From positions 42,256-106,255 of IMG/VR virus record IMGVR_UViG_3300023184_000031: 64,000 nt of DNA; one strand, written 5' to 3'. The DNA is from a virus. A program made the translations under genes and the position numbers. Numbering within the stretch: the first letter of the stretch is position 1; every line of letters starts with the position of its first letter. Of this stretch, positions 34,862 to 63,190 are shown piece by piece. Below the pieces are notes generated by a model. It searched no databases. It saw only the letters and a list, made by a program, of their open reading frames with translations, and was not told where the DNA came from.

Positions 34862-35401
34862 ATGACTAAGGAAGAAAGAAAAGAATATAATAAGCTTTAT
34901 TATATTAATAATAAAGAAACTATTATAAAACAAACCCAACAGTATTATACTGATAATAAAGAAACTATTAATGAACGTAATAGAAAATATTCTAAAAATC
35001 ATTATAAAAAAAACTCAGAACGTTATAAATTATGTATGATTAATCGTTACAAAAACGATCCTCAAACTAAATTATCTTTATTATTAAGAGTTAGATTAAA
35101 TAATGCTTTAAAAAAATCAAAAAAATCCTATAGTTCTTTTAAATTATTAGGATGTTCTATTTATGATTATAAGCAATATTTAGAAAATCAATTTAAATTA
35201 GGTATGACATGGGATAATCATGGTGATATATGGGAGATAGATCATATTAAACCATGTAATAGTTTTGATTTAACAAATATAGAACAACAAAAACAATGCT
35301 TTCATTATACTAATTTACAACCATTATTTAAAACCACAGAAATAGCTAAATCTCTAGGGCATATTAATGAAATGGGTAATAGAAATAAATCTGATAATTA
35401 A
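34862..35401 (+). mobile_element. HNH homing endonuclease gene
   Basis: 179 residues. A Lys/Tyr/Asn-rich N-terminus precedes the nuclease motif WEIDHIKPCNSFDL (Asp127–His128) with the partner HYTNLQPLF (His148, Asn151). This is the free-standing phage HNH type. It lies between two baseplate genes with gaps of 10 nt and 2 nt, a typical insertion that leaves both neighbours intact. It probably cleaves the matching site in related phages lacking it. Confidence 0.88.
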
Positions 35402-39554: not shown

Positions 39555-40847
39555 ATGTTTTACATTATAGAAAGACAAGAGCAATTAGATAAATTAGGTC
39601 CGTTTAATGATTGCTTCGTACAATTCATTCAACAAAACGATAATTACCATCCCAAATTAAGCCCACTAAGTTTAATTTATGTTCGTGATATAACACAACA
39701 TAAAGGGTATATGTTATGCTTAGATCACAATGAATCATTTGCATTAGATAAACAAACAACATTAAATTGGTTATTAGGTAATACTGATAGAATGTTTGTA
39801 CTAAATAAAAAAGAATCACTGTATCATTTTAGCTACCCAGACAAACTATTCGACATCAACTTTATTGAATTTCCAGACCTAACAGGCGTATTCACACCAT
39901 GTCATACATTCTATTACAAACAACACACAGCAAGTCCAATAACAAATAAACTAATTCCAATTAGTAAACATTATGAAGAATGCGAGAAAATGTTTGATGT
40001 AGTACTTCCAATAATACAAAAGTTCCGATCAGATAACGTTGTTTATGTGTTTAATAATGGCCCTTTAACGCGTGTGTTTCACACTATAGAGTCAAATGGT
40101 ATTAAGGTAGATAAACAATGCTTTATTGATGCTTATGGCGCTAACTTATCATACCCACAATTAAATCTTAGCAAAGGTAGAATATACAGTCAATACAACT
40201 TATACACATTAACAGGCAGACCATCAAACACATACAACAGCATTAATTTTGCTGCATTAGATAAAAATAGTGGTGAGCGTTTATGCTACAGACCCACAAA
40301 TGATACATTCTATGAATTTGATATTCAGGGGTATCATCCACGCATATTAGGTGATATGGTTGATTTTAACTTCGGTGATAGAAACACATATGAGCTACTA
40401 AGTGAATTATTAGGTGTATCAGCACAAGAAGCTAAGGAATTAACATTCAAACAATTTTATGGTGGTGTGTGGGCTGAATATAGAGATCAACCATTTTTTA
40501 GAGACATAGTAACACTAACAGACGGCATATGGGATGAATATAATTATAACAGAGCATATCCCACTAGGAACCGGATATTTATACATGACCCTGACATGAC
40601 TCAATCAAAGTTATTGAATTACATAATCCAAAGTTATGAGACTTCAACCAATGTTGCGATGTTAGATAACATATTGAATTACCTAAGCGATAAGAAAACT
40701 AAATTAGTGTTATACACGTATGATGCATTCTTATTTGACTACAGTAAGGAAGATGGCAAAGACCTATTAACAACATTAAAAAGTATGATACACTATCCCA
40801 TTAACATTAAACATGGTAAATCATACCACGGTTTAGAAAAACTATAA
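39555..40847 (+). CDS. Compact family A-like DNA polymerase
   Basis: 430 residues, much shorter than DNA polymerase I or T7 gp5. Catalytic-core motifs are visible: LTGRPSN (219–225) with NFAALDK; motif A EFDIQGYHPRI (Asp256); a reduced motif B region AKELTFKQFYGG (293–304); and motif C YTYDAFLFD (387–395, Asp390). The N-terminal 170 residues are in the place of a 3'-5' exonuclease but no DxE motif is seen, so proofreading is probably absent. It begins the replication module. T4 uses an unrelated family B enzyme. Confidence 0.75.
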   Translation: MFYIIERQEQLDKLGPFNDCFVQFIQQNDNYHPKLSPLSLIYVRDITQHKGYMLCLDHNESFALDKQTTLNWLLGNTDRMFVLNKKESLYHFSYPDKLFDINFIEFPDLTGVFTPCHTFYYKQHTASPITNKLIPISKHYEECEKMFDVVLPIIQKFRSDNVVYVFNNGPLTRVFHTIESNGIKVDKQCFIDAYGANLSYPQLNLSKGRIYSQYNLYTLTGRPSNTYNSINFAALDKNSGERLCYRPTNDTFYEFDIQGYHPRILGDMVDFNFGDRNTYELLSELLGVSAQEAKELTFKQFYGGVWAEYRDQPFFRDIVTLTDGIWDEYNYNRAYPTRNRIFIHDPDMTQSKLLNYIIQSYETSTNVAMLDNILNYLSDKKTKLVLYTYDAFLFDYSKEDGKDLLTTLKSMIHYPINIKHGKSYHGLEKL

Positions 40848-41627: not shown

Positions 41628-42284
41628 ATGATAAATACAACGAAAATCTACCTCGTTACGAATATCAATAACGACCCTAATAAAGTTTACATAGGTAAAA
41701 CTAAGGACAGTAGAGAAAACAAGCACAAAAAATCCTTTGGCTCTCAAATTACTTATACTTATATTGATGAAGTAAATTCCCTTAATAAGGAAGATTGGGA
41801 ACCATTAGAAACAAAATGGATACAACATTATATTAATTTAGGGTATGATGTTGTTAATATTCGTAGGAAAGGAGGAAGTGGACCTGAATATCTAAGTGAA
41901 GAAACTAGACAGAAGAAGAGTAAGGCTATGATTGGTAAAAAACATAGTGAAGAAACACTTCAAAAAATGCGCAAACCTAAGTCTAATACAGACAAAATGC
42001 GTAAACCAAAATCTACTTCTGAAAAACTACGTAAACCTAAAAGTAAACAGCATATACAAAATATGCGTAAACCTAAACCTAAAGAATTTGGGTTAAAAAT
42101 ATCAAAACCTGTACTGCAATATAATATAGATGGTACTTTTATTAAAGAATGGTCTTCAATTAAAGAAGCTAATATCTATACAAAAGTAAACAGAAGCAAC
42201 ATATCAGCATGCTGTAAACATAGATATAAAACAGCAGGTAACTTTATATGGAAATATAAAGATGTTTTGGAAAAGCAAAGTTAG
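41628..42284 (+). mobile_element. GIY-YIG homing endonuclease with NUMOD repeats
   Basis: 218 residues. The nuclease core begins KIYLVTNINNDPNKVYIGKT, with KIY and YIG as the GIY-YIG pair. A linker of repeated KMRKPKS/MRKPK units (about 115–155) is NUMOD3-like, and the C-terminal VLQYNIDGTFIKEWSSIKEA is a NUMOD1 DNA-binding module. It sits between a tagged gene and gp32 with its own hairpin and promoter-like octamer. It is probably a self-mobile gene. Confidence 0.9.
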
Positions 42285-50224: not shown

Positions 50225-50683
50225 ATGTTTCAATCAACAAAGTTGTTTGACGGCTACAGTACTGTATTTCGTCAATGGAAAGCTGAAGGCACGCACTGTC
50301 GCTTCCTACATGGTTATGGAGTGTCATTTAGAGTATGGTTCGAAGGCGAATTAGACGAGAAAAACTGGGTATTTGATTTTGGAGGCATGAAACGTGCTAA
50401 AGGAACTATTGATGGTATGAATCCTAAAGTATGGATGGATTATATGTTCGATCATACTACAATAGTAGCGGAAGATGATCCCGGTATTGGTGGATTTAAA
50501 ACAATGGACCAATTAGGAATTATTCAGTTACGTATTCTACCAGCTACTGGAGCAGAGCAATTTGCAAAATACATTTTTGAAAAATTAAATACATTTGTTC
50601 AAGAAGAAACGAGTGGTAGGGTTAAAGTAAGACGAGTTGAGTTTATGGAACACGCTAAAAACACTGCAATATATGAAGGTTAG
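50225..50683 (+). CDS. queD: QueD-like 6-carboxytetrahydropterin synthase
   Basis: 152 residues, normal for the 6-pyruvoyltetrahydropterin synthase/QueD fold. THCRFLHGYG holds the likely catalytic Cys25, but the usual HGH zinc pair reads HGY and the earlier FxAAH is YSTVFRQW, so the metal site is altered. NWVFDFGGMKRAKG, DHTTIVAEDDP and a late Glu (RVEFMEH) are conserved. It should convert dihydroneopterin triphosphate to 6-carboxytetrahydropterin. The DpdA-like gene starts inside its last 11 nt. Confidence 0.82.
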   Translation: MFQSTKLFDGYSTVFRQWKAEGTHCRFLHGYGVSFRVWFEGELDEKNWVFDFGGMKRAKGTIDGMNPKVWMDYMFDHTTIVAEDDPGIGGFKTMDQLGIIQLRILPATGAEQFAKYIFEKLNTFVQEETSGRVKVRRVEFMEHAKNTAIYEG

Positions 50684-51458
50684 TCACGAACTACCATTAT
50701 CGCTAATGCATAATGGTTATGAATGGAATGATTATGATTATTGTCTACCACATCTAATAGACAAATATCTCCAATACAGAATATATTTTCAAAAATCCAG
50801 TCTAGATGGTCGTTTTATTATTATGGATAATGGATTATTTGAAGGAGTAGAACACACAACAGAAGATTTAATTGAAAAAATTAATCTAATAATCCCTGAT
50901 GTGTTTATTGTCCCTGATGCTTGGAATGACTCAGCAATAACACTGCGTAACGCTAAAGAATGGATGAATAACCATATCCATAAATTACCCGAAGGTGTTA
51001 ACTTAATGGCTGTATGTCAAGGAGAATCATTAGGTGAACTAATATCAACATACCAAACACTATTAGATTTAGGTTATACACACATAGCATTCAATCATTC
51101 AAGTGCTGCTTATCAAACTATGTATCCTAATCTAGATCCATTAAAAGCTCAAATGTATGGTAGAATGGAGTTTATTAGAAGACTAGTAGCAGAAAATATA
51201 ATAAATAGAAGAGTATATCATCATTTATTAGGGTGTTCATTACCGCAGGAATTCATGTCATATAAAGATTGGCCATTCATTCAATCATGTGACACATCAA
51301 ATCCAATTTTAGTTGGAGCTGAAGGTATAAGATACACTGATAGTGGTTTAACATGGAAACCAAAAGAAAAATTAGAGTTTTATCTTGAAAAAGATTTGAG
51401 TGGCAAAACAAAAGATATTATATTCAATGTACAAAAATTTAAAGATTATGTTAAATAA
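50673..51458 (+). CDS. dpdA: DpdA-like DNA 7-deazaguanine transglycosylase
   Basis: 261 residues from ATG 50673. The TGT-superfamily pattern is recognisable: RFIIMDNGLFEG (candidate nucleophile Asp52), MAVCQGESLGEL (113–122), YTHIAFNHSS, YHHLLGCSLPQEF and FIQSCDTSNP (Asp207). tRNA-guanine transglycosylases exchange guanine for a 7-deazaguanine in tRNA; the short phage type found beside que genes, DpdA, does so in DNA. Lacking an RNA-binding PUA domain and lying between queD and queC, it is best read as DpdA. A tRNA-directed enzyme is the alternative. Confidence 0.8.
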   Translation: MKVSHELPLSLMHNGYEWNDYDYCLPHLIDKYLQYRIYFQKSSLDGRFIIMDNGLFEGVEHTTEDLIEKINLIIPDVFIVPDAWNDSAITLRNAKEWMNNHIHKLPEGVNLMAVCQGESLGELISTYQTLLDLGYTHIAFNHSSAAYQTMYPNLDPLKAQMYGRMEFIRRLVAENIINRRVYHHLLGCSLPQEFMSYKDWPFIQSCDTSNPILVGAEGIRYTDSGLTWKPKEKLEFYLEKDLSGKTKDIIFNVQKFKDYVK

Positions 51459-51732
51459 ACAACAACAACCAATAGATATGTTCTCATTGTATGACTATCT
51501 AGGCCACGCAGCCGGAAATAAATTAGGTAAACAAGTAGCATCTTATGCTAAGCTTAGAAAAGCAAAACACGCTACTAAGCATGTTAGCAATCCCTCTTAT
51601 ACAGGTGAAGTAATGATGTATACTAAAGCGTTCTTAGATGAATGTTTTAATGCTAAAAAAGTATTTGAACCTAAACATGAAGATCTAACAGAATTAAACA
51701 CACAATTAGCAAACGACAATTTACCATTTTAA
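51448..51732 (+). CDS. Unknown small protein in the que cluster
   Basis: 94 residues from ATG 51448, which overlaps the previous stop; a GTG farther upstream would extend into dpdA and is less likely. Lys/His-rich N-terminal half (KLRKAKHATKHVS) and an acidic C-terminus ending NTQLANDNLPF. It lies 1 nt before queC and is probably co-translated with the modification genes. No family recognised. Confidence 0.65.
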   Translation: MLNKQQQPIDMFSLYDYLGHAAGNKLGKQVASYAKLRKAKHATKHVSNPSYTGEVMMYTKAFLDECFNAKKVFEPKHEDLTELNTQLANDNLPF

Positions 51733-51733
51733 T

Positions 51734-52552
51734 ATGAAACAAGCAGTATTATCTCTCTCAGGCGGTATGGATAGTAGTACATTATTATTGCATCTATTAT
51801 CTACTGGATATCAAGTAACAGCATTATCATTTGATTACGGACAAAAACACCGTGTTGAATTAGAGCGTGCACAACAACTAATTACATACGTTAATGAGAA
51901 TTTATTTAAACAAAATAAACCATTAGTACGTTACCAAACAATTCGATTAGATGGACTATCAGATCTACTCAGTTCAGCACTAGTAACAGGTGGATCAGAT
52001 GTACCAGAAGGACACTACGCTCATGAAAATATGAAGGATACTGTAGTACCAAATCGCAATAAAATATTTAGTTCTATTATTCAAGCAGTAGCGTTATCAA
52101 TTGCTACTAAGAATGGAAAACAAGATGTAGCTATTGCGATGGGAATACATGCTGGTGATTTCAGTGTTTATCCTGACTGCAGACAAGAATTTAGAGATGC
52201 TGATATGGAAGCTTTTAAATTAGGTAACTGGGATAGCGAATATGTTGGATTCTACACACCTTATTTAGAAGTAACAAAACATGAAATACTAGAAGATGGA
52301 ATATGGGCCTGTAATAAATTAGGTCTTGATTTTGATGAAGTATACAAGCGTACTAATACATCATATAAACCAATTTTAATAGACGGTATCTGGTACTCTG
52401 ATTATAAGTCAGCAGCCTCTGTAGAGCGCATTGAGGCTTTTCTAAAACTAGATCGTCCTGATCCTGTAAGTTATGCTGATGAAGATGGAGTTGCTAATTG
52501 GGAAAAAGCATCCGCTCATGTTAAAGAAGTACTAGCAGTTTATGGAAAATAA
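51734..52552 (+). CDS. queC: QueC-like enzyme lacking the zinc cysteines
   Basis: 272 residues. The ATP pyrophosphatase motif SGGMDSS (9–15), VPNRN (106–110), YPDCRQEF (146–153) and TPYLEVTKHEIL (175–186) are QueC hallmarks. The C-terminal zinc site, normally SCY...CGxCxxC, reads TSY (209–211) and D223-x2-S226-x2-S229, with no cysteine left, while the following Arg and helix are kept. QueC makes preQ0 from 7-carboxy-7-deazaguanine through an amide (ADG). This form may stop at the amide or have another way to stabilise the fold. Confidence 0.85.
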   Translation: MKQAVLSLSGGMDSSTLLLHLLSTGYQVTALSFDYGQKHRVELERAQQLITYVNENLFKQNKPLVRYQTIRLDGLSDLLSSALVTGGSDVPEGHYAHENMKDTVVPNRNKIFSSIIQAVALSIATKNGKQDVAIAMGIHAGDFSVYPDCRQEFRDADMEAFKLGNWDSEYVGFYTPYLEVTKHEILEDGIWACNKLGLDFDEVYKRTNTSYKPILIDGIWYSDYKSAASVERIEAFLKLDRPDPVSYADEDGVANWEKASAHVKEVLAVYGK

Positions 52553-52590
52553 ATATTTGGAGATCAGTCGCGTTTTTTAGATGGTCACCA

Positions 52591-52598
52591 TATTTATT
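52591..52598 (+). promoter_or_regulatory. TATTTATT promoter-like octamer before HNH gene
   Basis: TATTTATT 13 nt before the ATG at 52612; a small ATGGTCACCAT palindrome precedes it. Confidence 0.4.
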
Positions 52599-52611
52599 GG
52601 AAACAACAATT

Positions 52612-53052
52612 ATGGAAAAACAAATATGCTCTAAGTGTAAAAATGAATATCCATTTACATTAGATTACTTCGGTAAACATAAAGTAAGAGGTTTAGACAC
52701 ATATTGCAAAACATGTAGAAAAGCAACCACTAAATCTAATTATTATGCTAATAAAGAAAAATGGAATGCCACTACAAGACGGAATAAAAAATTACAACGT
52801 GAACGAATAAATGAATTAAAAGATTCATTATTATGTTTAAAATGCGGAGAAAATAGAAATCATTTACTTGATTTTCATCATATTGATCCTAATCAAAAAG
52901 ACTTTCAAATAAGTCAAGGCGAACAATATGGATGGGAAAAAATAAAACAAGAAATAGATAAATGTATAGTATTATGCTCTAATTGCCATAGAGATTTTCA
53001 TTATCAAGAAAAACAAAGTGGGATAGGTATAAAAGAATATCTGGCAAAATAA
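52612..53052 (+). mobile_element. HNH endonuclease with zinc fingers
   Basis: 146 residues from ATG 52612 (a TTG 15 nt upstream is less likely). An N-terminal zinc finger, CSKC (6–9) with CKTC (32–35), is followed by a Lys-rich linker, CLKC (75–78), the nuclease motif DFHHIDP (87–93) and LCSNCHRDFH (121–130). It is a typical free-standing phage HNH gene, inserted right after queC and ahead of an HTH gene. Confidence 0.88.
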
Positions 53053-53091
53053 AAATCTTATATTTAAGTAAACAAAAACCCAAGTATAGTT

Positions 53092-53328
53092 ATGAGTTAT
53101 CAAACAAACGTTCGTGCGAACTATTTAAACCGCACAGCAAAATTAGCTTTCTTTAAAGCTCGTCAACGCCAAGGAGATGTAAATCGTATTTCTGAAGAAA
53201 CAGGTTACAGTCCTCGTATGGTGTATTACACACTAACTGGTGAGCGTAAAGTAAACAATACTATTGCTGATGCAATGTATACAATTTCTTGCAGACGTCA
53301 AAAGAACAACGAATACGCAAACGCGTAA
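53092..53328 (+). CDS. Small helix-turn-helix DNA-binding protein
   Basis: 78 residues, basic. VNRISEETGYSPRMVYYTLT (about 30–50) has the spacing of a helix-turn-helix with GYSPRMV as the turn and recognition start. It could be a small transcriptional regulator of the phage. It is followed by a strong terminator. A leader TATATTTAAG at about 53060 resembles the promoter octamer imperfectly. Confidence 0.6.
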   Translation: MSYQTNVRANYLNRTAKLAFFKARQRQGDVNRISEETGYSPRMVYYTLTGERKVNNTIADAMYTISCRRQKNNEYANA

Positions 53329-53345
53329 TTTGTAAAACAAACCCT

Positions 53346-53378
53346 AATATCCCTGTTGAAAGGCAGGGATATTTTTTT
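53346..53378 (+). terminator. Strong intrinsic terminator
   Basis: Ten-bp stem with core ATATCCCTG/CAGGGATAT (53347–53355 with 53364–53372), 8-nt loop, T-run to 53378. Confidence 0.88.
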
Positions 53379-53389
53379 AACTTTCAACT

Positions 53390-53611
53390 ATGACAGTAAA
53401 AGAATTAATAGAACATCTACAAACACTAGATCCCGATCTACGTGTATTCATTAAAGGATATGAAGGTGGTGTTGATGATAAAACTTCAATATCAGAACCA
53501 GTTGACATTACACTAAATGTTCACACAGAGTGGTATTATGGCGAGCATGACTACACTGATATAGGATATGAACCAGCAAATAAACAAATAGTAAAAGGTA
53601 TAGTATTATGA
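53390..53611 (+). CDS. Small conserved hypothetical protein
   Basis: 73 residues starting MTVKELIEHLQTLDPDLRVF, then KGYEGGVDD. This start belongs to a small widespread hypothetical family in bacteria and phages that I recognise only as such. It overlaps the queE start by 4 nt. Function unknown. Confidence 0.6.
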   Translation: MTVKELIEHLQTLDPDLRVFIKGYEGGVDDKTSISEPVDITLNVHTEWYYGEHDYTDIGYEPANKQIVKGIVL

Positions 53612-54450
53612 GTAAAATAGATCCAAATAAGCTGTTAATCAGCTCAGACTTCTACTCCGTTCAAGGAGAAGGTATATCAACAGGAATACCATCATATTTC
53701 GTTCGCTTAGGATTATGTAACCTAACTTGCGGTATGAGTAGAAAATTCACTAACGCTTTATTAAAAGAAGCAGCACTAGCCGATGGTGAAATATTCAAAG
53801 GCGATTTAGAGTTAGAAGGTAAAGCAACATGGACTTGTGATAGTGTATCTCAATGGCTATGGAGAGGTGAAGATAAAGAGTTTCAATATCTAATTGATAG
53901 ATGGAAGGAACAAGGCATCTATGATGATATTAAGAACGGTACTATCCATATCATTTGGACTGGTGGTGAACCTACAATTAAAGGACATCAGGAAGCAATT
54001 GCTAACTTTACTAGCTATTGGTTTGCTAACACAGGAGGATATTTAGGAGATTTTAAACCATACTACGAAATAGAAACAAACGGTACAGTAGTAATTGACG
54101 ATAGACTATGGGGTTCATTAGATCAAATCAACTGCTCACCAAAGCTATCTAACTCAGGTATGACTGAGAAACAACGTATTAACCCAGACGCAATCAAGCG
54201 TATAATGGAACATTCCAATTACCAATTCAAGTTTGTAATCAGCCATGAAGAAGACATTAAAGAATTATTCCGTGACTTTGTCGTACCATTTAGCATACCT
54301 CTTGCCAACGTGGTTTGTATGCCAGGACTAGATAGTCAAACTGATTTCCATGAGCGTACTCAATTCGTATTAGAGATGGCTAAGAAGTATAAATTTAGAG
54401 GCTTAACAAGATTACATATCTCAGCTTGGGATAAAACATTAAACGTATAA
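53608..54450 (+). CDS. queE: QueE-like 7-carboxy-7-deazaguanine synthase (radical SAM)
   Basis: 280 residues. YSVQGEGISTGIPSYFVRLG is the QueE entry segment, followed by CNLTC (Cys37, Cys41). The third cluster cysteine appears only at Cys77 in TWTCDS, about 35 residues later, so an insertion lies within the cluster loop. IIWTGGEPT (SAM site) and the central EIETNGT are conserved. It should convert 6-carboxytetrahydropterin to 7-carboxy-7-deazaguanine. It overlaps genes at both ends. Confidence 0.85.
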   Translation: MSKIDPNKLLISSDFYSVQGEGISTGIPSYFVRLGLCNLTCGMSRKFTNALLKEAALADGEIFKGDLELEGKATWTCDSVSQWLWRGEDKEFQYLIDRWKEQGIYDDIKNGTIHIIWTGGEPTIKGHQEAIANFTSYWFANTGGYLGDFKPYYEIETNGTVVIDDRLWGSLDQINCSPKLSNSGMTEKQRINPDAIKRIMEHSNYQFKFVISHEEDIKELFRDFVVPFSIPLANVVCMPGLDSQTDFHERTQFVLEMAKKYKFRGLTRLHISAWDKTLNV

Positions 54451-54647
54451 TGACAGTCGATGAAATCGAAATAGCTCAAAAGGTGATTTGGGAATTGATA
54501 GAGAACCATAAAAGTGAAAAGCAAGCTCTTATGAAACAGCTTGGAGCGCTTACTGATACAAATCCATTTCCAATCGCTAAAAGATCAGAGCTTTTTAAAC
54601 TGTACGACTGCTATGATCTACTAGAGCAAGAAAAAACAAAACATTAA
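54450..54647 (+). CDS. Small helical protein, unknown
   Basis: 65 residues, helical and charged (EIEIAQKVIWELIENHKSEK). One-nt overlap with queE and 18 nt before folE, so it is in the que transcript. No family recognised. Confidence 0.6.
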   Translation: MTVDEIEIAQKVIWELIENHKSEKQALMKQLGALTDTNPFPIAKRSELFKLYDCYDLLEQEKTKH

Positions 54648-54665
54648 ACGTATAAAATATAAACA

Positions 54666-55391
54666 ATGGAAAATACACGCAGAAAAATTACTAATGTAGA
54701 GACATTAGAAACAGCACAATCCGGATTTGCAAACGGTATTTCAACCCAATTAGCAGGTGTACTTAGTAGAGGCGATCATCGCTCACTCAACGCCCAAGAA
54801 AAACAAATCATTATCGAAAATGCTGAAAAAGCATACGGCGATTTCCTAACAGCACTAGGTGTTGATTGGAAAAGCGATCCAAACAGTATGGAAACACCTC
54901 GTCGTGTAGCTAAAGCATATGTAATGGATTTGTGGAAAGGTAGATATGAATTACCAACAGATATAACAGCATTCCCAAGTGATGGATATGATGGTATTGT
55001 ATTAGAAAGAGATATTCCAATCGTTAGTATGTGCTCACATCACCACCAAGCAATCCTAGGTAAAGCACACATCGCTTATATTCCAGGAGCAGAGGGTAAA
55101 GTAGTAGGTTTATCTAAATTGAATCGCATTGTAGAGCATTTCGCTCGTAGAGGTGCTATTCAGGAACAACTTACAGTAGCTATCCACAATGCTATTCAAG
55201 CAGTAGCTGAAACTGAAAACGTAATGATAATAGTACACAGCACACACAATTGTGTCTCATGTAGGGGCGTTAAACATTGGGGTGCTAGTATGGTTACAAG
55301 CGAAGTAAGTGGCGTATTTGCTGATCACAATAGAACAGCTAAGCAAGAAGTAATGAGTATGCTTACACTTCATCTTCAAACATATTGTTAA
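54666..55391 (+). CDS. folE: GTP cyclohydrolase I (FolE)
   Basis: 241 residues. TPRRVAKAYVMDLW (78–91), SMCSHHHQAI with Cys123 and His126, and HNCVSCRGVKHWGA with Cys196 give the zinc site and active-site pattern. It opens GTP to dihydroneopterin triphosphate, the substrate of QueD. In context it starts 7-deazaguanine synthesis rather than folate synthesis. It is followed by a hairpin. Confidence 0.94.
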   Translation: MENTRRKITNVETLETAQSGFANGISTQLAGVLSRGDHRSLNAQEKQIIIENAEKAYGDFLTALGVDWKSDPNSMETPRRVAKAYVMDLWKGRYELPTDITAFPSDGYDGIVLERDIPIVSMCSHHHQAILGKAHIAYIPGAEGKVVGLSKLNRIVEHFARRGAIQEQLTVAIHNAIQAVAETENVMIIVHSTHNCVSCRGVKHWGASMVTSEVSGVFADHNRTAKQEVMSMLTLHLQTYC

Positions 55392-55431: not shown

Positions 55432-56082
55432 ATGATAGGAATATATAAAATAACAAGTCCAACTAATAGAATATATATTGGTCAATCTAGAAATATTGAA
55501 CGTAGATGGAGATATTATTATTCTAATATAATAACAATAAAACAACATATTAAACTACACCGTAGTATATTAAAACATGGAGTTGAAAATCATAAGTTTG
55601 AAGTTATTGAAGAGTGTAATATTGAACAGTTAGATGAACGTGAAATATATTGGATAAATTATTATGATAGTATTAAACAAGGATTGAATGTTGGTTTAGG
55701 AGGTAGTGGAGGAAATGGATTACTAAATAAAGGTAAAAAACATGCCTCCACTACTATTAATAAAATGAAACAATGGTGGAATATGAATAAAAAATCAAGA
55801 CCACAAGAAGTAATAGATAAAATAAAACAAACTAAACGAAATAATCCTCGTATTACTACTAATGAAATGATTTTAAAGTATAGAGAAAATGCTCCTAATA
55901 AAAAAATAGTTGAACAATATTCATTAGACGGAACTAAATTAGCTGAATTTAATAGTATAAATGAAGCCGCTAGGCAAACTAATAGTAGTAAAGATGGTAT
56001 TTCATTTTGCTGTAATGGTAGACAAAATACATCAAATGGATTTATTTGGAAATTTAAATTAAATATGGAAGGCTACAGATAA
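55432..56082 (+). mobile_element. GIY-YIG homing endonuclease
   Basis: 216 residues. GIY at residues 3–5 and IYIGQS at about 14–19 form the catalytic pair; RRWRYYY and the later EREIYWINYYDS follow. The C-terminus has a NUMOD1-like module (YSLDGTKLAEFNSINEAARQ), then SFCCNGRQNTSNGFIWKF. It lies between folE and a small membrane gene, and its stop overlaps the next start. A free-standing mobile gene. Confidence 0.9.
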
Positions 56083-56905: not shown

Positions 56906-59900
56906 ATGGGCTTAATATTACGTCAAACACTTACCCCCAACTCAGGAAACGGATTATCAATTAAAGGATTCGCATTATCTTATGCAGAAGGTGATGGTAA
57001 CTTTATGTACCTCCTGACTAATATGTCAGGTAGTAATATATCAATCACAGGTTCTACAGGGATAATAGGTAATTTTCAATCCGTAGGTACAGTTAATTTT
57101 CCTAGTTTAACTAATTCTACCCAAACAAATATTTTAACATATAATTCTGCTTCTGGACAATTATATTATTTAGGAACAGGATCATTAACAGTAGGTACAG
57201 CATCATGGGTAAGTTCATCTAACGTATATGGACCTTATGGATTTGATTCTATAAAAAGTGCTTCATATGCTTCTAGTTCATTTTCATCAGTAAGTGCTTC
57301 ATATGCAAGTACAGCATCATTTGTTTTAAGTGCATCATATGCACTAAGTTCTTCTCGTGCCACAACAGCTTCTTATGTTTTAAGTGCATCATATGCTTCA
57401 ACAGCATCATATGCTTTAAGTTCATCATATTCATTAAGTAGCTCATTTGCATCAACCGCATCTTATGTTTTAAGTGCATCATATGCTTTAACATCGTCGG
57501 TAGCAATAAGTGCATCATATGCTTCAACAGCATCATTTGTACTTAGCAGCTCATATGCTTTAACAGCATCACAAGCTACAAGTGCATCATATGCTTTAAG
57601 TTCATCATATACTTTAAGTAGTTCATTTGCATCAACAGCATCATTTGTATTAAGTAGCTCATATGCAACCAGTGCCTCACAGGCTAATAGTGCATCAACA
57701 ATACTTACTACAGTAGCAGGTGTAAATCAAAGTTATTATCCAACATTTGTTGATTCAACAAGTAATGGAAATCATGCTTTATATGATAATGGTAACTTAA
57801 CATACAACCCAGTAACTCAGTTATTAACAGCAACGGCTTCTTGGGCTCAATCGGCATCCTTCACTGTTAGTGCATCCTATGCTACTAGTGCTTCTCAAGC
57901 AGTAACAGCATCATATACGGTAAGTAGCTCATATGCCTCTACAGCATCAATAGCAACAAGTGCTTCATATGCTTTAACATCATCATATACATTAAGCAGT
58001 TCATATGCTACATCAGCATCAATAGCTAGTACAGCATCATATACAGTAAGTAGCTCATATGCTACTTCAGCATCTCAAGCAGCAACTGCTTCCTACACAG
58101 TAAGTAGTTCATTTGCTTCAACCGCATCCTTCACTGTTAGTGCATCCTATGCTACTAGTGCTTCTCGCGCTGTAACAGCATCATATACTGTAAGTAGCTC
58201 ATATGCAACAACAGCATCCTATACACTTAGTAGTTCATATGCAACAACATCATCATATACTTTAAGTAGTTCATTCGCTACTACAGCATCATATACATTA
58301 AGCAGCTCATTTGCTAGTACAGCATCATATACATTAAGCAGCTCATTCGCTAGTACAGCATCATATACACTTAGTAGCTCATATGCAACAAGTGCTTCTA
58401 TAGCTAATGTAACTCCAAATGTGTATGTAACAGCAGTAGCTCTAAATCAAAATTACTACCCATTATTTGTTGATGGTACAAATTCCTCAATACACGCAGT
58501 AGATGTAAATGGACAATTAACATATAATCCATCAACTCAGTTATTAACAGCAACTGCTTCTTGGGCTCAATCATCATCATACACAGTAAGTTCATCATTT
58601 GCTAGTACAGCAAGTTATGTTGTAAGTAGCTCATATGCTACTTCAGCATCTCAAGCAGCAACAGCATCATATACACTTAGTAGTTCATATGCTTCAACAG
58701 CATCATTTGTACTTAGCAGCTCATACGCAACTAGTGCATCACAAGCTACTAGTGCATCATATGCCTCTACAGCATCGTTTGTGCTTAGCAGCTCATATGC
58801 CTCAACAGCATCGTATGTTTTAAGTTCATCATTTGCTTCTACAGCATCATATGTTTTAAGTGCATCATATGCTGCTAGTGCTTCACGAGCAGTAAGTAGC
58901 TCTTATGCTGCTACGGCATCTTATGTTATTAGTGCATCATATGCTACTAGTGCATCACAAGCCACAAGCGCATCATATACATTAAGTTCATCATATGCCT
59001 CAACAGCATCTTATGTTATAAGTAGTTCATATGCAACTACAGCATCGTATGTTGCTAGTGCATCATATGCTACTAGTGCATCACAAGCAACAAGTGCTTC
59101 ATATACGCTTAGTAGCTCATATGCCTCTACAGCATCATTTGTTAATAGTGCATCTTTTGCAACAACTTCATCATATACAGTAAGTAGCTCATTTGCTGAT
59201 ACAGCAAATGTAACTCCAAATGTATATGTAACAGTAGCAGCTCAAAATCAAAGCTACTACCCATTATTTGTTGATGGTACAAATTCCACAATACACGCAG
59301 TAGATGTAAATGGTAATTTAACTTACAATCCAGTAACTCAGCTATTAACAGCAACATCATCGTGGGCTCAATCGGCATCCTTTACTGTTAGTGCATCCTA
59401 TGCTACTAGTGCTTCTCGCGCTGTAACAGCATCATATACCCTTAGCAGCTCATATGCCTCAACAGCATCGTATGTACTTAGCTCATCATATGCCTCTACA
59501 GCATCCTATGTTTTAAGTGCCTCATACGCAACTAGTGCATCACAAGCATTAAGTTCATCATATTCATTAAGTAGCTCATATGCAACTAGTGCATCACAAG
59601 CTACAAGTGCATCATATGCCTCAACAGCATCGTTTGTGCTTAGCAGCTCATATGCCTCAACAGCATCATTTGTATTGAGTTCATCATATGCCTCTACAGC
59701 ATCAATAGCAACCAGTGCATCATATGCTTCAACAGCATCGTTTGTGCTTAGTAGTTCATATGCTTTATCTTCATCACAAGCAACAAGCGCATCACATGCC
59801 GCTACAGCATCATATGTTTTAAGTAGCTCATATGCAACTAGTGCTTCATATGCCTCTACAGCATCGTTTGTGCTTAGCAGCTCATATGCTTCAACAGCAT

Positions 59901-62900
59901 CGTTTGTGCTTAGCAGTTCATATGCAACAAGTGCATCACAAGCTACAAGTGCATCATACGCGTCTACAGCATCGTTTGTGCTTAGCAGCTCATATGCCTC
60001 TACAGCATCATTTGTACTTAGCAGCTCATATGCAACAAGTGCATCATATGCTACTAGTGCATCATACGCCTTTAATAGTACAACAGCATCATATGTTAAT
60101 CTAACAGCAGGACCAGGTATTACAATTAATGCAACAACGATTACAGCATCTGTTAGAGCAGTAAACGGGATAGGACCAGATAATATTACAGGTAACATAG
60201 CAACATCATTAACAGCTGTAAAAACAGGTTTATCATCATCCGGTACTAATAATCTTGTAGTATCTTCATCAGGAGCATTAACAGGTTCCATACCTCAAGG
60301 ATTAATTTGGGTTGTTTCAGGAGAAACAGGACCTAAATCAGGAAGTAATGGTGAAGCTTGGATATTTGTCCCATCTGGATCATCTCCAGGAGTAACAACA
60401 GGTTCATGGTACCTATTATCAGGAATTAATTCAGCAGCAATAGGTGCTTCTTATCTACCATTAGCTGGTGGTACAATGACTGGTAATATTACTATGGGTT
60501 CTGGTATTAGTTTACTTGGTACTGCTAGTTGGGCTGCAAGTGCATCAAATGCAGTAAGTTCTCAAACGGCATCTTATCTACCAGTAGCAACATATCAAAT
60601 AACATCAAGTTGGGCAGTAAGCTCATCTCAAGCTGTATCATCATCATATGCAACAACATCATCATATACATTAAGCAGCTCATTCGCTAGTACAGCATCA
60701 TATACACTTAGTAGTTCATATGCAACAACAGCATCCTATACACTTAGTAGTTCATATGCAACAACATCATCATATACGCTTAGTAGCTCATTCGCTAATA
60801 CAGCATCATATACTTTAAGTAGTTCATTCGCTACTACAGCATCATATGTCTTAAGTGCATCATATGCCGCTACAGCATCATATACGCTTAGTAGCTCATA
60901 TGCTGGAACTTCTTCACTTGTTAATATCCTATCATCAAGTGCAAATCAATCATATAGTGTACTTTTCACTCCAGAAACTTCAGGATCACAAGCATTATAT
61001 GTTGATAGTAGTACTGGTTCTTTAACTTATAATCCAAGTACTAATATATTAACCGCTACAGCATCATATGCTCTTGTAGCATCACAATCACAATATCCAT
61101 TTTCAACAACAGGATCTACAATATATTCAACATATCCTGCAGCAGGTCCTTTTTCTATAACCCCAATATATAGTATTATTATAGGTCAAAGTGCTGGTCA
61201 AAATGCTATTGGGGCTAATACTTCAATTTTTATAGGTTCAGGATCAGGTCAACTTGCTATTAATGCTGATAACTCAGTATTTCTAGGAAACAAAGCAGGA
61301 TACAATTCCAGTGCTGCAAATAATTCAACATTTATAGGTCAAAATGCAGGAGGCAATGCAGGTAATGCAAATAATTCAACATTTATAGGTCAAAGTGCTG
61401 GTAATGGTGCAACAAAGGCTATTAATTCTATATTCATTGGCACTTCTACTGGTCAATATCAATCAGCAACTTCATATTCTATAGCATTAGGAAATGGAGC
61501 TGGACAAAATTTTACAGGTGTTGCTGCTGGTAATATGGGATCTAATAATATTATAATAGGTACAAGAATAACAGTAGCTGTAGGACAATCAAATAGTATT
61601 AATATTGGTGGTTTAATATTTGGAACAGGATCAAATTTTGCAACCTCCGGTGCTCCATCATCTGGATCAGCAGGCGGTAAAATAGGTATTAATGTCCCTG
61701 CTCCATCATATAATTTCCAAGTATCAGGTACTGTAGCATTTAGTAATTTAGATGATAATGCACTATTACCGCTAGTACGTGTTGTAATGGCTGATAGCAA
61801 TGGCCAATTATTCTACACAGCATCATCAGCAATAGGAGGTGGTGGAGGAGGCGGTGGAACACCACAAGGCAATAACACAGAGATACAATATAATAATAAC
61901 GGTGTGTTTGGTGGATTAAGCGTTTTAACATACGACGCTACACCAGGTGCCGGATTAGTAGGAACAGGTTCATTTACCGGTTCATTCAGCGGATCATTAT
62001 TCGGATCAGCTAGTTATGCTACTTCAGCTTCCTTTGCAACAACAGCATCGTATGCCCTTAGCGCATCATATGCTTTAAGTAGTAGTTATGCTACTACGGC
62101 ATCATATGCAACAACCGCAGTAACATCCTCATATCCATTATCAACAATAGGTACAGCATTATATCCAACCTACGTTACAACTAGTGATTTTGCAACTCTT
62201 CACTCTGTATTCCTAGGCCAAAATGCTGGTACTTATACATCAGGGGGAACTGGAGCTACTCTTACTGCTTATACTACAATGATAGGTCAAGATGCAGGTA
62301 GTGGTTCACAATATGCTAGACACTCTAATTTTATAGGATATAGAGCAGGTAATGTAGGTGGTTTAAGCTCAGTAACGAATGAATCTAACTTTATAGGTAA
62401 ACAATCAGGGGAATATGCTTACTTTGCTAACGCCTCAAATTTCTTTGGAGGATTAGCTGGTGGTTCAGCTACAAGCGCTTCAAACTCTAATTTCTTTGGC
62501 TCTCAAGCAGGTCAAAACTCATCAAATGCTTCAAACTCTAATTTCTTTGGTCAACAAGCAGGTAGACAAGCAATAAGTGCTAGTTATTCAACGTTTATTG
62601 GTTATAAAGTAGGACTTGCTCCTACTACTGCTAATAGTGTTGGTTCTAATAACATTATAATAGGTACAAATATTACATTACCTATAACGGCGTCTAATGC
62701 TATTAATATAGGTGGTGTATTATTTGGATCTGGATCATATGCAACAACAACCGGCAATCCATCATCTGGATCAGCAGGCGGTAAAATAGGTATTAATGTT
62801 CCTCTCCCATCATATAGTCTCCATGTATCAGGTACTGTTGGATTTACAAATTTAGTAACATCATCTGCTGCTGTTACAAACGTAGTAGTAGCTGATGGTA

Positions 62901-63190
62901 ATGGCCAATTATGGGTTACAGCATCATCAGCAGTAGGACCTACAACTCCTGCCGGTGTAAAAGCAGGATCAGGCTCAGTAGCTTCATTTACAGGTAACCC
63001 ATCATCATCTGCAGTAACATTCGGAACATCATTTGGTAATAATTTATATGCTGTAGCAGTAACAGGGGAAGATGAAAGATCATGGACTATAGTAAGCAAA
63101 TCAGCAACCGGATTTACAATAAATTCAAATTCAATTGTACCATTAACAGGACCTGTTTATTGGATAGCAACACCATTTAGTAACGCATAA
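56906..63190 (+). CDS. Giant tail fibre protein with hexapeptide repeats
   Basis: 2094 residues. An N-terminal virion-attachment domain (about 1–115) is followed by long runs of six-residue repeats of the type S(Y/F)Axx(S/A) in several blocks up to about residue 1060. They are interrupted by about 45-residue modules with YYPLFVDGTN and LTYNPxTQLLTATASWAQ. Later come a unique domain (about 1070–1200), more hexads, and two copies of a (N)xTFIGQxAG repeat domain resembling YadA-type heads, each followed by KIGINVP and VSGTV. It is a trimeric shaft-and-head adhesin, probably host-binding. Confidence 0.85.
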   Translation: MGLILRQTLTPNSGNGLSIKGFALSYAEGDGNFMYLLTNMSGSNISITGSTGIIGNFQSVGTVNFPSLTNSTQTNILTYNSASGQLYYLGTGSLTVGTASWVSSSNVYGPYGFDSIKSASYASSSFSSVSASYASTASFVLSASYALSSSRATTASYVLSASYASTASYALSSSYSLSSSFASTASYVLSASYALTSSVAISASYASTASFVLSSSYALTASQATSASYALSSSYTLSSSFASTASFVLSSSYATSASQANSASTILTTVAGVNQSYYPTFVDSTSNGNHALYDNGNLTYNPVTQLLTATASWAQSASFTVSASYATSASQAVTASYTVSSSYASTASIATSASYALTSSYTLSSSYATSASIASTASYTVSSSYATSASQAATASYTVSSSFASTASFTVSASYATSASRAVTASYTVSSSYATTASYTLSSSYATTSSYTLSSSFATTASYTLSSSFASTASYTLSSSFASTASYTLSSSYATSASIANVTPNVYVTAVALNQNYYPLFVDGTNSSIHAVDVNGQLTYNPSTQLLTATASWAQSSSYTVSSSFASTASYVVSSSYATSASQAATASYTLSSSYASTASFVLSSSYATSASQATSASYASTASFVLSSSYASTASYVLSSSFASTASYVLSASYAASASRAVSSSYAATASYVISASYATSASQATSASYTLSSSYASTASYVISSSYATTASYVASASYATSASQATSASYTLSSSYASTASFVNSASFATTSSYTVSSSFADTANVTPNVYVTVAAQNQSYYPLFVDGTNSTIHAVDVNGNLTYNPVTQLLTATSSWAQSASFTVSASYATSASRAVTASYTLSSSYASTASYVLSSSYASTASYVLSASYATSASQALSSSYSLSSSYATSASQATSASYASTASFVLSSSYASTASFVLSSSYASTASIATSASYASTASFVLSSSYALSSSQATSASHAATASYVLSSSYATSASYASTASFVLSSSYASTASFVLSSSYATSASQATSASYASTASFVLSSSYASTASFVLSSSYATSASYATSASYAFNSTTASYVNLTAGPGITINATTITASVRAVNGIGPDNITGNIATSLTAVKTGLSSSGTNNLVVSSSGALTGSIPQGLIWVVSGETGPKSGSNGEAWIFVPSGSSPGVTTGSWYLLSGINSAAIGASYLPLAGGTMTGNITMGSGISLLGTASWAASASNAVSSQTASYLPVATYQITSSWAVSSSQAVSSSYATTSSYTLSSSFASTASYTLSSSYATTASYTLSSSYATTSSYTLSSSFANTASYTLSSSFATTASYVLSASYAATASYTLSSSYAGTSSLVNILSSSANQSYSVLFTPETSGSQALYVDSSTGSLTYNPSTNILTATASYALVASQSQYPFSTTGSTIYSTYPAAGPFSITPIYSIIIGQSAGQNAIGANTSIFIGSGSGQLAINADNSVFLGNKAGYNSSAANNSTFIGQNAGGNAGNANNSTFIGQSAGNGATKAINSIFIGTSTGQYQSATSYSIALGNGAGQNFTGVAAGNMGSNNIIIGTRITVAVGQSNSINIGGLIFGTGSNFATSGAPSSGSAGGKIGINVPAPSYNFQVSGTVAFSNLDDNALLPLVRVVMADSNGQLFYTASSAIGGGGGGGGTPQGNNTEIQYNNNGVFGGLSVLTYDATPGAGLVGTGSFTGSFSGSLFGSASYATSASFATTASYALSASYALSSSYATTASYATTAVTSSYPLSTIGTALYPTYVTTSDFATLHSVFLGQNAGTYTSGGTGATLTAYTTMIGQDAGSGSQYARHSNFIGYRAGNVGGLSSVTNESNFIGKQSGEYAYFANASNFFGGLAGGSATSASNSNFFGSQAGQNSSNASNSNFFGQQAGRQAISASYSTFIGYKVGLAPTTANSVGSNNIIIGTNITLPITASNAINIGGVLFGSGSYATTTGNPSSGSAGGKIGINVPLPSYSLHVSGTVGFTNLVTSSAAVTNVVVADGNGQLWVTASSAVGPTTPAGVKAGSGSVASFTGNPSSSAVTFGTSFGNNLYAVAVTGEDERSWTIVSKSATGFTINSNSIVPLTGPVYWIATPFSNA
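57258..60090 (+). repeat. 18-bp coding repeats (hexapeptide shaft)
   Basis: Units such as TCATATGCTTTAAGTAGC encode SYALSS, SYASTA, SFVLSS and similar. Spacing between successive S-Y/F/Q/R positions is six residues through whole blocks. CATATG recurs many times. Blocks are separated by the YYPLFVDG modules. Confidence 0.85.
61150..62840 (+). repeat. Duplicated FIGxxAG head modules
   Basis: Two blocks (about 61150–61735 and 62200–62840) each carry several NSxFIGxxAGxxA repeats, then GSNNIIIGT, then SGSAGGKIGINVP and VSGTVxFxNL. The second is a diverged duplicate of the first. Confidence 0.75.

What the first reader, a model, noticed from the sequence alone, without database searches (positions are those of the whole stretch)
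50225..55391. Five-gene 7-deazaguanine DNA modification cassette in a T4-like phage
QueD, a DpdA-like transglycosylase, QueC, QueE and FolE lie within 5.2 kb, interleaved with small unknown genes and two HNH/HTH genes. Together they cover GTP to a 7-deazaguanine base plus its insertion into DNA. Phages using this chemistry to block restriction are known, but here it sits in a T4-like phage whose relatives usually use other modifications. The small unknown genes (51448, 53390, 54450) could be accessory factors.
Basis: partly seen in the sequence, partly recalled or inferred. Interest (0 to 1): 0.78.

Follow-up and report, generated by a model that had tools for sequence, protein, structure and literature searches.

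The report
Phage cassette for 7-deazaguanine DNA bases
A T4-like virus, related to phages of Bacteroidota, carries the genes to build an altered guanine and most likely swap it into its own DNA, a known anti-restriction trick, but with an unusual set of enzymes, including one that has lost the zinc site described as a hallmark of its family.

Summary
QueD, a transglycosylase, QueC, QueE and FolE lie at 50225-55391 on one strand of a T4-like phage record. The 50673 protein has no TGT Pfam hit, but its confident model (pLDDT 95) matches TGT and the solved DpdA (Z about 17.5). Relatives include a transglycosylase of Flavobacterium phage immuto and a protein of Campylobacter phage CP220, whose guanine is reported fully replaced.

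Such cassettes are known, in T4-like phages too, so the system itself is not new. The enzymes are unusual. QueC here and in 72 of 73 relatives (one is truncated) lacks all four zinc cysteines, replaced by conserved Ser/Asp/Ser/Ser; the same zinc-free clade includes marine archaea, Planctomycetes and Fastidiosibacteraceae. QueD has HGY for HGH; QueE has 35 residues inside its iron-sulfur cysteine motif. QueF and a formyltransferase, typical of the sister immuto clade, were not found, so preQ0 or ADG is the likely base.

The HNH gene is rarely shared; the HTH gene and 51448 are conserved; 53390 and 54450 are not. Many relatives place a xanthine/guanine phosphoribosyltransferase beside FolE, suggesting recycling of guanine freed by DpdA; none was found in the window's record. 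No chemistry could be tested.

The parts
50225..50683 (+). QueD-like (CPH4 synthase), with HGY in place of the HGH zinc motif
50673..51458 (+). DpdA-like DNA guanine transglycosylase, TGT fold, no PUA, no CxCxxC motif; related to immuto DpdA and Campylobacter CP220 gp056
51448..51732 (+). small conserved gene of unknown function, overlapping the DpdA stop
   Evidence: match in 55 of 85 loci; among phage records only in the 4 immuto records
51734..52552 (+). QueC without the zinc cysteines (S210, D223, S226, S229 at the four positions)
52597..53052 (+). HNH endonuclease, probably a mobile (homing) insertion
   Evidence: phrog_2255 E=3e-36; match in 5 of 85 loci, only 2 of them (L024, L069) inside the cassette; 2 of 80 at E<=1e-5
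53092..53328 (+). small HTH-like gene conserved in this clade, possible regulator or DNA-binding partner
   Evidence: 54 of 80 window-clade loci, 0 of 80 immuto-clade loci; weak family hits only
53390..53611 (+). small gene of unknown function, rarely shared
   Evidence: 4 of 85 loci
53608..54450 (+). QueE radical SAM enzyme with a Cx3C-x35-C cluster motif
54450..54647 (+). small gene of unknown function, no match in relatives
   Evidence: 0 of 85 loci
54666..55391 (+). FolE (GTP cyclohydrolase I)

Best explanation
The cassette makes a 7-deazaguanine base and puts it into the phage's DNA after replication. FolE, QueD and QueE convert GTP to 7-carboxy-7-deazaguanine; QueC turns this into preQ0, possibly stopping at the amide ADG; the DpdA-like enzyme exchanges guanine in DNA for that base. 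The purpose is most likely protection from host restriction enzymes. Because the transglycosylase is kin to the CP220 protein, replacement may be extensive. Shown here: gene identities, fold, conservation, and no match for QueF, formyltransferase or thymidylate-synthase families in the record. Inferred: action on DNA, identity of the base (dPreQ0 about 0.6, dADG about 0.25), extent and purpose.
For: Families. Model of 50673: pLDDT 95.2; Z 18.0 to archaeosine TGT, 17.5 to DpdA 7ui4 and 17.4-17.6 to Z. mobilis TGT. Simple motif patterns over 157 relatives of 245 or more residues from both clades: DN[GS] 155, [VI]PD 157, QG 157, H[LF]LG 157, DTSxP 157. Nearest annotated relative is immuto 'DNA guanine transglycosylase' (35%), then CP220-type proteins (34%, 98% covered). 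CP220 and CPt10 DNA is reported with 100% of dG replaced by dADG (passage in PMC8306585). FolE+QueD+QueE+QueC+DpdA without an amidotransferase gave dPreQ0 in CAjan and Rosebush, and CAjan with mutated dpdA lost both the modification and the restriction resistance (PMC6884629 sections). Gene order kept in 46 of 46 relatives with all five genes. QueC keeps SGGxDS, YxQxHxxE, VPxRN, YPDC and the essential Tyr (motifs from PMC13329287). A zinc-free QueC sits beside FolE-, QueE- and QueD-like ORFs (named by eye) in a Thalassarchaeaceae MAG, which argues that such a QueC works. No PF00303, QueF or formyltransferase match in the record.
Against: No chemistry was measured. Fold cannot tell DNA from tRNA as substrate. 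A profile search of the PDB reached DpdA only at E=0.21, and comparison with phiSM DpdA was not significant. QueC and QueD lack hallmark zinc ligands, so activity is inferred from conservation. Site avoidance speaks, if anything, against relaxed restriction pressure on G: 6-mer palindromes with and without G are avoided alike (median 0.84 for both), and 4-mer palindromes with G are avoided more (0.79 against 0.98). ArcS was not searched for. The record may be incomplete.
Confidence: 0.85

Rival explanations
1. The cassette feeds queuosine-type tRNA modification: the phage boosts preQ0 and the transglycosylase acts on tRNA to tune translation.
For: TGT and DpdA structures score alike; a tRNA role is discussed for phages with que genes (passages of PMC7198788; PMC6884629).
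Against: No PF01702 match; no CxCxxC motif in 157 relatives; no QueF match in the record; sequence kinship is to immuto and CP220, the latter with DNA reported as fully dADG.
Confidence: 0.08
2. The base enters DNA as a modified dGTP, and the transglycosylase does something else.
For: Proposed earlier for Campylobacter phages, then thought to lack DpdA (PMC6884629); a thymidylate kinase gene lies beside the transglycosylase in CP220 and CC_R7, and two genes further on in immuto.
Against: The CP220 neighbour is now seen to be a relative of a TGT-fold protein; the immuto thymidylate kinase has no match in 80 of 80 window-clade loci (flanks of up to 8 kb); no nucleoside-level enzyme was seen in the cassette.
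Confidence: 0.05
3. QueC without zinc stops at an earlier product, so the DNA carries ADG or the carboxy base instead of preQ0.
For: The zinc ligands are gone in 72 of 73 relatives, the other one truncated; CP220 has dADG.
Against: CP220 QueC keeps the zinc cysteines although its DNA has dADG, so zinc status does not predict the product; catalytic residues are retained; a zinc-free QueC sits among que-like genes of a marine archaeon.
Confidence: 0.25

Closest known systems
Flavobacterium phage vB_FspM_immuto (Immutovirus) 7-deazaguanine gene set
   Same: DpdA of the same family (35%), QueD about 70%, zinc-free QueC 61-64%, FolE 64%, capsid protein 60%
   Different: Immuto has QueF, a formyltransferase and a thymidylate kinase near DpdA, its QueC lies about 10.5 kb from QueD, and its QueE has a 7-residue spacing
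Campylobacter phage CP220 (Firehammervirus), DNA reported as dADG
   Same: A relative of the transglycosylase (34% over 98%); QueC, QueE and FolE homologues; T4-like annotation
   Different: Genes scattered over the genome; QueC keeps its zinc cysteines
Phage preQ0 cassettes of Escherichia phage CAjan and Mycobacterium phage Rosebush (group 2 of Hutinet 2019, PMC6884629)
   Same: FolE, QueD, QueE, QueC plus a DpdA, no amidotransferase seen
   Different: No phage of their kind is among the 30 records that tblastn with the window DpdA finds; QueC of Rosebushvirus MasterPo and Seuratvirus Skure (CAjan's genus, recalled) has the zinc motif
Canonical QueC (PDB 3BL5, 2PG3)
   Same: Fold (3BL5: Z 17.4, 192 residues) and catalytic motifs
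   Different: All four zinc ligands replaced

Membership tests
Phage 7-deazaguanine DNA-modification cassette, preQ0 type | FolE, QueD, QueE and QueC all present | tested here: met
Phage 7-deazaguanine DNA-modification cassette, preQ0 type | DpdA-type transglycosylase | tested here: met
   TGT/DpdA fold, kin to immuto and CP220 proteins; activity not tested
Phage 7-deazaguanine DNA-modification cassette, preQ0 type | no QueF/QueF-L, no Gat domain on QueC, no ArcS | tested here: inconclusive
   no PF14489 match in the record and no Gat domain on QueC; ArcS was not searched for and the record may be incomplete
Phage 7-deazaguanine DNA-modification cassette, preQ0 type | modified base in virion DNA | not testable with these tools
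   needs LC-MS
tRNA-guanine transglycosylase (PF01702) | match to the TGT profile | tested here: not met
tRNA-guanine transglycosylase (PF01702) | CxCxxC zinc motif (recalled) | tested here: not met
   0 of 157 relatives have the pattern
DpdA3 (complete-replacement subfamily, Cui 2023, recalled; paper not held) | membership with the CP220 protein | tested here: inconclusive
   34% identity over 98% to CP220 gp056, but the subfamily definition could not be read
QueC (canonical) | SGGxDS, YxQxHxxE, VPxRN, YPDC motifs | tested here: met
QueC (canonical) | C(x)8CxxCxxC zinc motif | tested here: not met
   absent in the window and in 72 of 73 relatives; the other (L021) is truncated there
QueD (TIGR03367) | score over the curated cut-off | tested here: not met
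   29.6 against 89.25 bits; the PTPS Pfam cut-off is met
QueE radical SAM | three cluster cysteines in CxxxCxxC | tested here: not met
   three cysteines kept but spaced Cx3C-x35-C; a long spacing is also in HVTV-1 QueE, whose DNA is modified
T4-like phages | T4-type head and packaging proteins | tested here: met

The most novel reading that the evidence does not exclude
This phage family replaces most guanine in its DNA, and in many members the guanine released by DpdA is recycled: a xanthine/guanine phosphoribosyltransferase-like gene abuts folE, returning guanine to GMP and so to the start of the same pathway. It works with a zinc-free QueC lineage shared with marine archaea and Planctomycetes. 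In the window's own record no such phosphoribosyltransferase was found, and it would lean on the host.
Probability: 0.3. Interest if true: 0.6.

Novelty: new variant of a known kind. Interest (0 to 1): 0.42.

Why it matters
It places a clade of uncultured T4-like phages among the likely 7-deazaguanine users and ties its transglycosylase to a protein of a phage with fully replaced guanine. The zinc-free QueC, conserved across phages, archaea and bacteria, makes directly testable whether zinc, described as required for QueC function, is needed at all. Two sister phage clades with one DpdA family but different tailoring genes give a clear prediction of different DNA bases.

Tried and rejected
Chance clustering: rejected by gene order in relatives. 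T4-type hydroxymethylcytosine: no PF00303 match in the record, though 4 of 9 long relatives (161-183 kb; 3 of the 8 of the window clade) have one, so it is not excluded for the clade. QueF in window-clade relatives: 7 of 8 long contigs gave weak matches under the cut-off; for L061 and L072, whose coordinates I compared, these lie in FolE, and I take the rest as the same T-fold cross-hit. Restriction-site avoidance as a genomic sign of G replacement: gave no support. Sequence search of the PDB with the transglycosylase profile: best rows were designed TIM barrels, DpdA at E=0.21, so a model was needed. PDB sequence search with QueD alone: no hit at E<=0.01. Idea that 53092 is a detached DpdA domain: only a weak match to a queuine transferase family (E=0.016), not pursued. 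QueE insertion as a sign of a dead enzyme: rejected, since HVTV-1 has a long spacing too. Searches for print on DpdA3, zinc-free QueC and guanine salvage with 7-deazaguanine listed nothing that I recognised as on point beyond PMC13329287, in a held open-access library only; the key 2023 paper is not held. Passages of PMC11500664 and PMC12783734 were seen and are not used.
Full report
Observation. The window lies at 42256-106255 of a 170,255-base virus record; its GC is 33.6%. Family scans name QueD, QueC, QueE and FolE with strong PHROG or Pfam E-values. The phage is T4-like by Pfam for terminase, portal, prohead protease, major capsid, sheath and gp32. Its capsid protein is nearest to Flavobacterium phage immuto (60%), with Rhodothermus phage RM378 at 39%, so it looks like the Far-T4 group described for Bacteroidetes viruses (passages of PMC7198788).

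The transglycosylase. The 50673 protein (261 aa) has no Pfam match and matches two PHROGs of unknown function, phrog_19058 (E=4e-32) and phrog_20335. tblastn in 50,697 phage records finds 30: the four immuto records (annotated DNA guanine transglycosylase), 15 Campylobacter phage records, five of Cellulophaga phiST type, five Bacillus and one Weizmannia phage. A 60-sequence alignment gave a model with pLDDT 95.2. VIA-align puts it at Z 18.0 to archaeosine TGT, 17.5 to the solved DpdA 7ui4 and about 17.5 to bacterial TGT; at 261 residues it has no PUA domain. Foldseek among viral models gives an uncultured phage protein (E=8e-28), Cellulophaga phiST (E=2e-16) and, further down, Vibrio phage nt-1 (E=3e-5). 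The residues D52-N53, D82, Q116-G117, L186-G187 and D207-T-S are the conserved core; I read these as the TGT base-binding and nucleophile positions, from memory of TGT. Fold does not separate DNA from tRNA use. The DNA reading rests on phage context and on CP220, whose dG is reported as 100% replaced by dADG (passage of PMC8306585) and whose group was earlier thought to lack DpdA (PMC6884629). From memory only, a 2023 paper named the CP220 type DpdA3 and linked it to complete replacement; I could not read it.

Clade and variation. A scan of IMG/VR found 172 stretches encoding relatives, of which the best 80 were kept. Over these plus 5 stretches of 4 named phages, matches were found for DpdA in 84 of 85, QueC 78, QueD 74, QueE 63, 51448 in 55, HTH 53092 in 54, FolE 53, HNH 5 (2 of them inside the cassette), 53390 in 4 and 54450 in 0; many loci are cut by contig ends, and near-copies were not removed. 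All five genes occur in 46 of the 80, always in the window's order; 3 of the 72 with QueD and DpdA have QueD second. A 90-residue gene between QueD and DpdA is present in 62 of 80 relatives but not at that place here. A second clade around immuto (80 of 98 kept) shares DpdA in 80 of 80, but has QueF in 69, a formyltransferase in 71 and a thymidylate kinase in 73 of 80, against 0, 0 and 0 of 80 in the window clade, within flanks of 5 and 8 kb. No match for QueF, phosphoribosyltransferase or formyltransferase families was found in the window's whole record, and no QueF over the cut-off in 8 long window-clade contigs, against 2 of 2 immuto-clade contigs. So the window clade should stop at preQ0 or ADG, and the immuto clade at a preQ1-type base.

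QueC without zinc. C(x)8CxxCxxC is listed as a hallmark of QueC, and zinc as required (first part of the results and passages of PMC13329287). In the window QueC the four positions are S210, D223, S226 and S229, at least 97% conserved over 74 sequences; of the 73 relatives 72 plainly lack the cysteines and one is truncated there. Of 12 other phage QueCs that I picked from the 210 matching records, 11 keep them; Rhizobium phage RHEph04 has lost them separately. The other motifs stay, including the tyrosines and arginine whose mutation inactivates E. coli QueC. The model (pLDDT 85) is closest to B. subtilis QueC, Z 17.4 over 192 residues, with the zinc-free stretch in blocks of pLDDT 83-95. The one scan of the 84,980 species genomes returned the best 80 of 299 relatives: 71 lack the four-cysteine set, 8 have it, 1 is cut. 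They include marine group II archaea, Pirellulaceae and Fastidiosibacteraceae; some hits are probably phage contigs in MAGs (L268 carries a DpdA-like ORF, by eye). In a tree of 99 (the cut one left out), the 79 zinc-free rows other than RHEph04 form one group with support 96/92; several long branches sit among the other phages, and the sample is biased to relatives of the query. In an archaeal locus (L280) the zinc-free QueC follows FolE- and QueE-like ORFs and precedes a QueD-like one, named by eye.

QueD and QueE. QueD has HGY for HGH in 110 of 112 ORFs found in both clades; the other two are fragments without that stretch. HGY is also in phiST and phiSM, and the same type, by eye, stands beside zinc-free QueC in a Thiotrichales genome, L269. 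QueE spacing between the second and third cysteine is 35 in 61 window-clade ORFs, 7 in 48 and 11 in 1 immuto-clade ORFs, of 119; the other 9 are fragments. HVTV-1 also has a long spacing, and its DNA is reported with about 30% of G as dPreQ1, so the insertion need not mean loss of function.

A recycling hint. A phosphoribosyltransferase abuts FolE: downstream in 30 of 30 window-clade loci where both were found, upstream in 58 of 58 immuto-clade loci, 54 of these within 300 bases. Among loci with at least 1.5 kb on both sides of FolE it is found in 26 of 43 and 52 of 64. Its best matches are purine and xanthine-guanine phosphoribosyltransferases. Eight of 9 long relatives have a family match over the cut-off, though in at least one (L072's contig) it lies some 34 kb from FolE, and the window's record has none even at E<=10. 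DpdA exchange must release guanine, so salvage to GMP is a natural role; this is inference.

Verdict. A real and well-conserved 7-deazaguanine DNA-modification cassette of a known kind, with unusual enzyme variants. The zinc-free QueC lineage and the FolE-linked phosphoribosyltransferase are the parts worth following.

Noticed in passing
L001:5932-6324, L009:13037-13447 and others: Xanthine/guanine phosphoribosyltransferase-like gene next to FolE in two sister clades, on opposite sides of it; no match in the window's record.
   Followed up: partly
L280, L286, L269-L277 (GTDB genomes): Zinc-free QueC in marine group II archaea, Pirellulaceae and Fastidiosibacteraceae; L269 has phage-type QueD and QueE beside it, by eye.
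   Followed up: partly
L003:9494-10036, L004:6799-7341, L001:9570-10094: Thymidylate kinase gene next to the transglycosylase in CP220 and CC_R7, and with two genes between in immuto.
   Followed up: no
L168:583-1416: Rhizobium phage RHEph04 QueC has lost its zinc cysteines independently.
   Followed up: no
window 56906-63190: Very long ORF (2094 aa) made largely of ASYA(S/T)(T/S)ASY-like repeats, probably a fibre-type protein (read).
   Followed up: no
window 39555-40847: 430-aa ORF that looks like a piece of a family A DNA polymerase by eye but has no Pfam match at E<=0.01 or PHROG match at E<=0.001.
   Followed up: no
window 41628-42284 and 55432-56082: Two GIY-YIG-like ORFs; with HNH-like ORFs at 34862 and 52597 they suggest several homing endonucleases (only 52597 was scanned).
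   Followed up: no
L083:7732-8001: Conserved 90-aa gene between QueD and DpdA in 62 of 80 relatives, not at that place in the window; no clear family.
   Followed up: no
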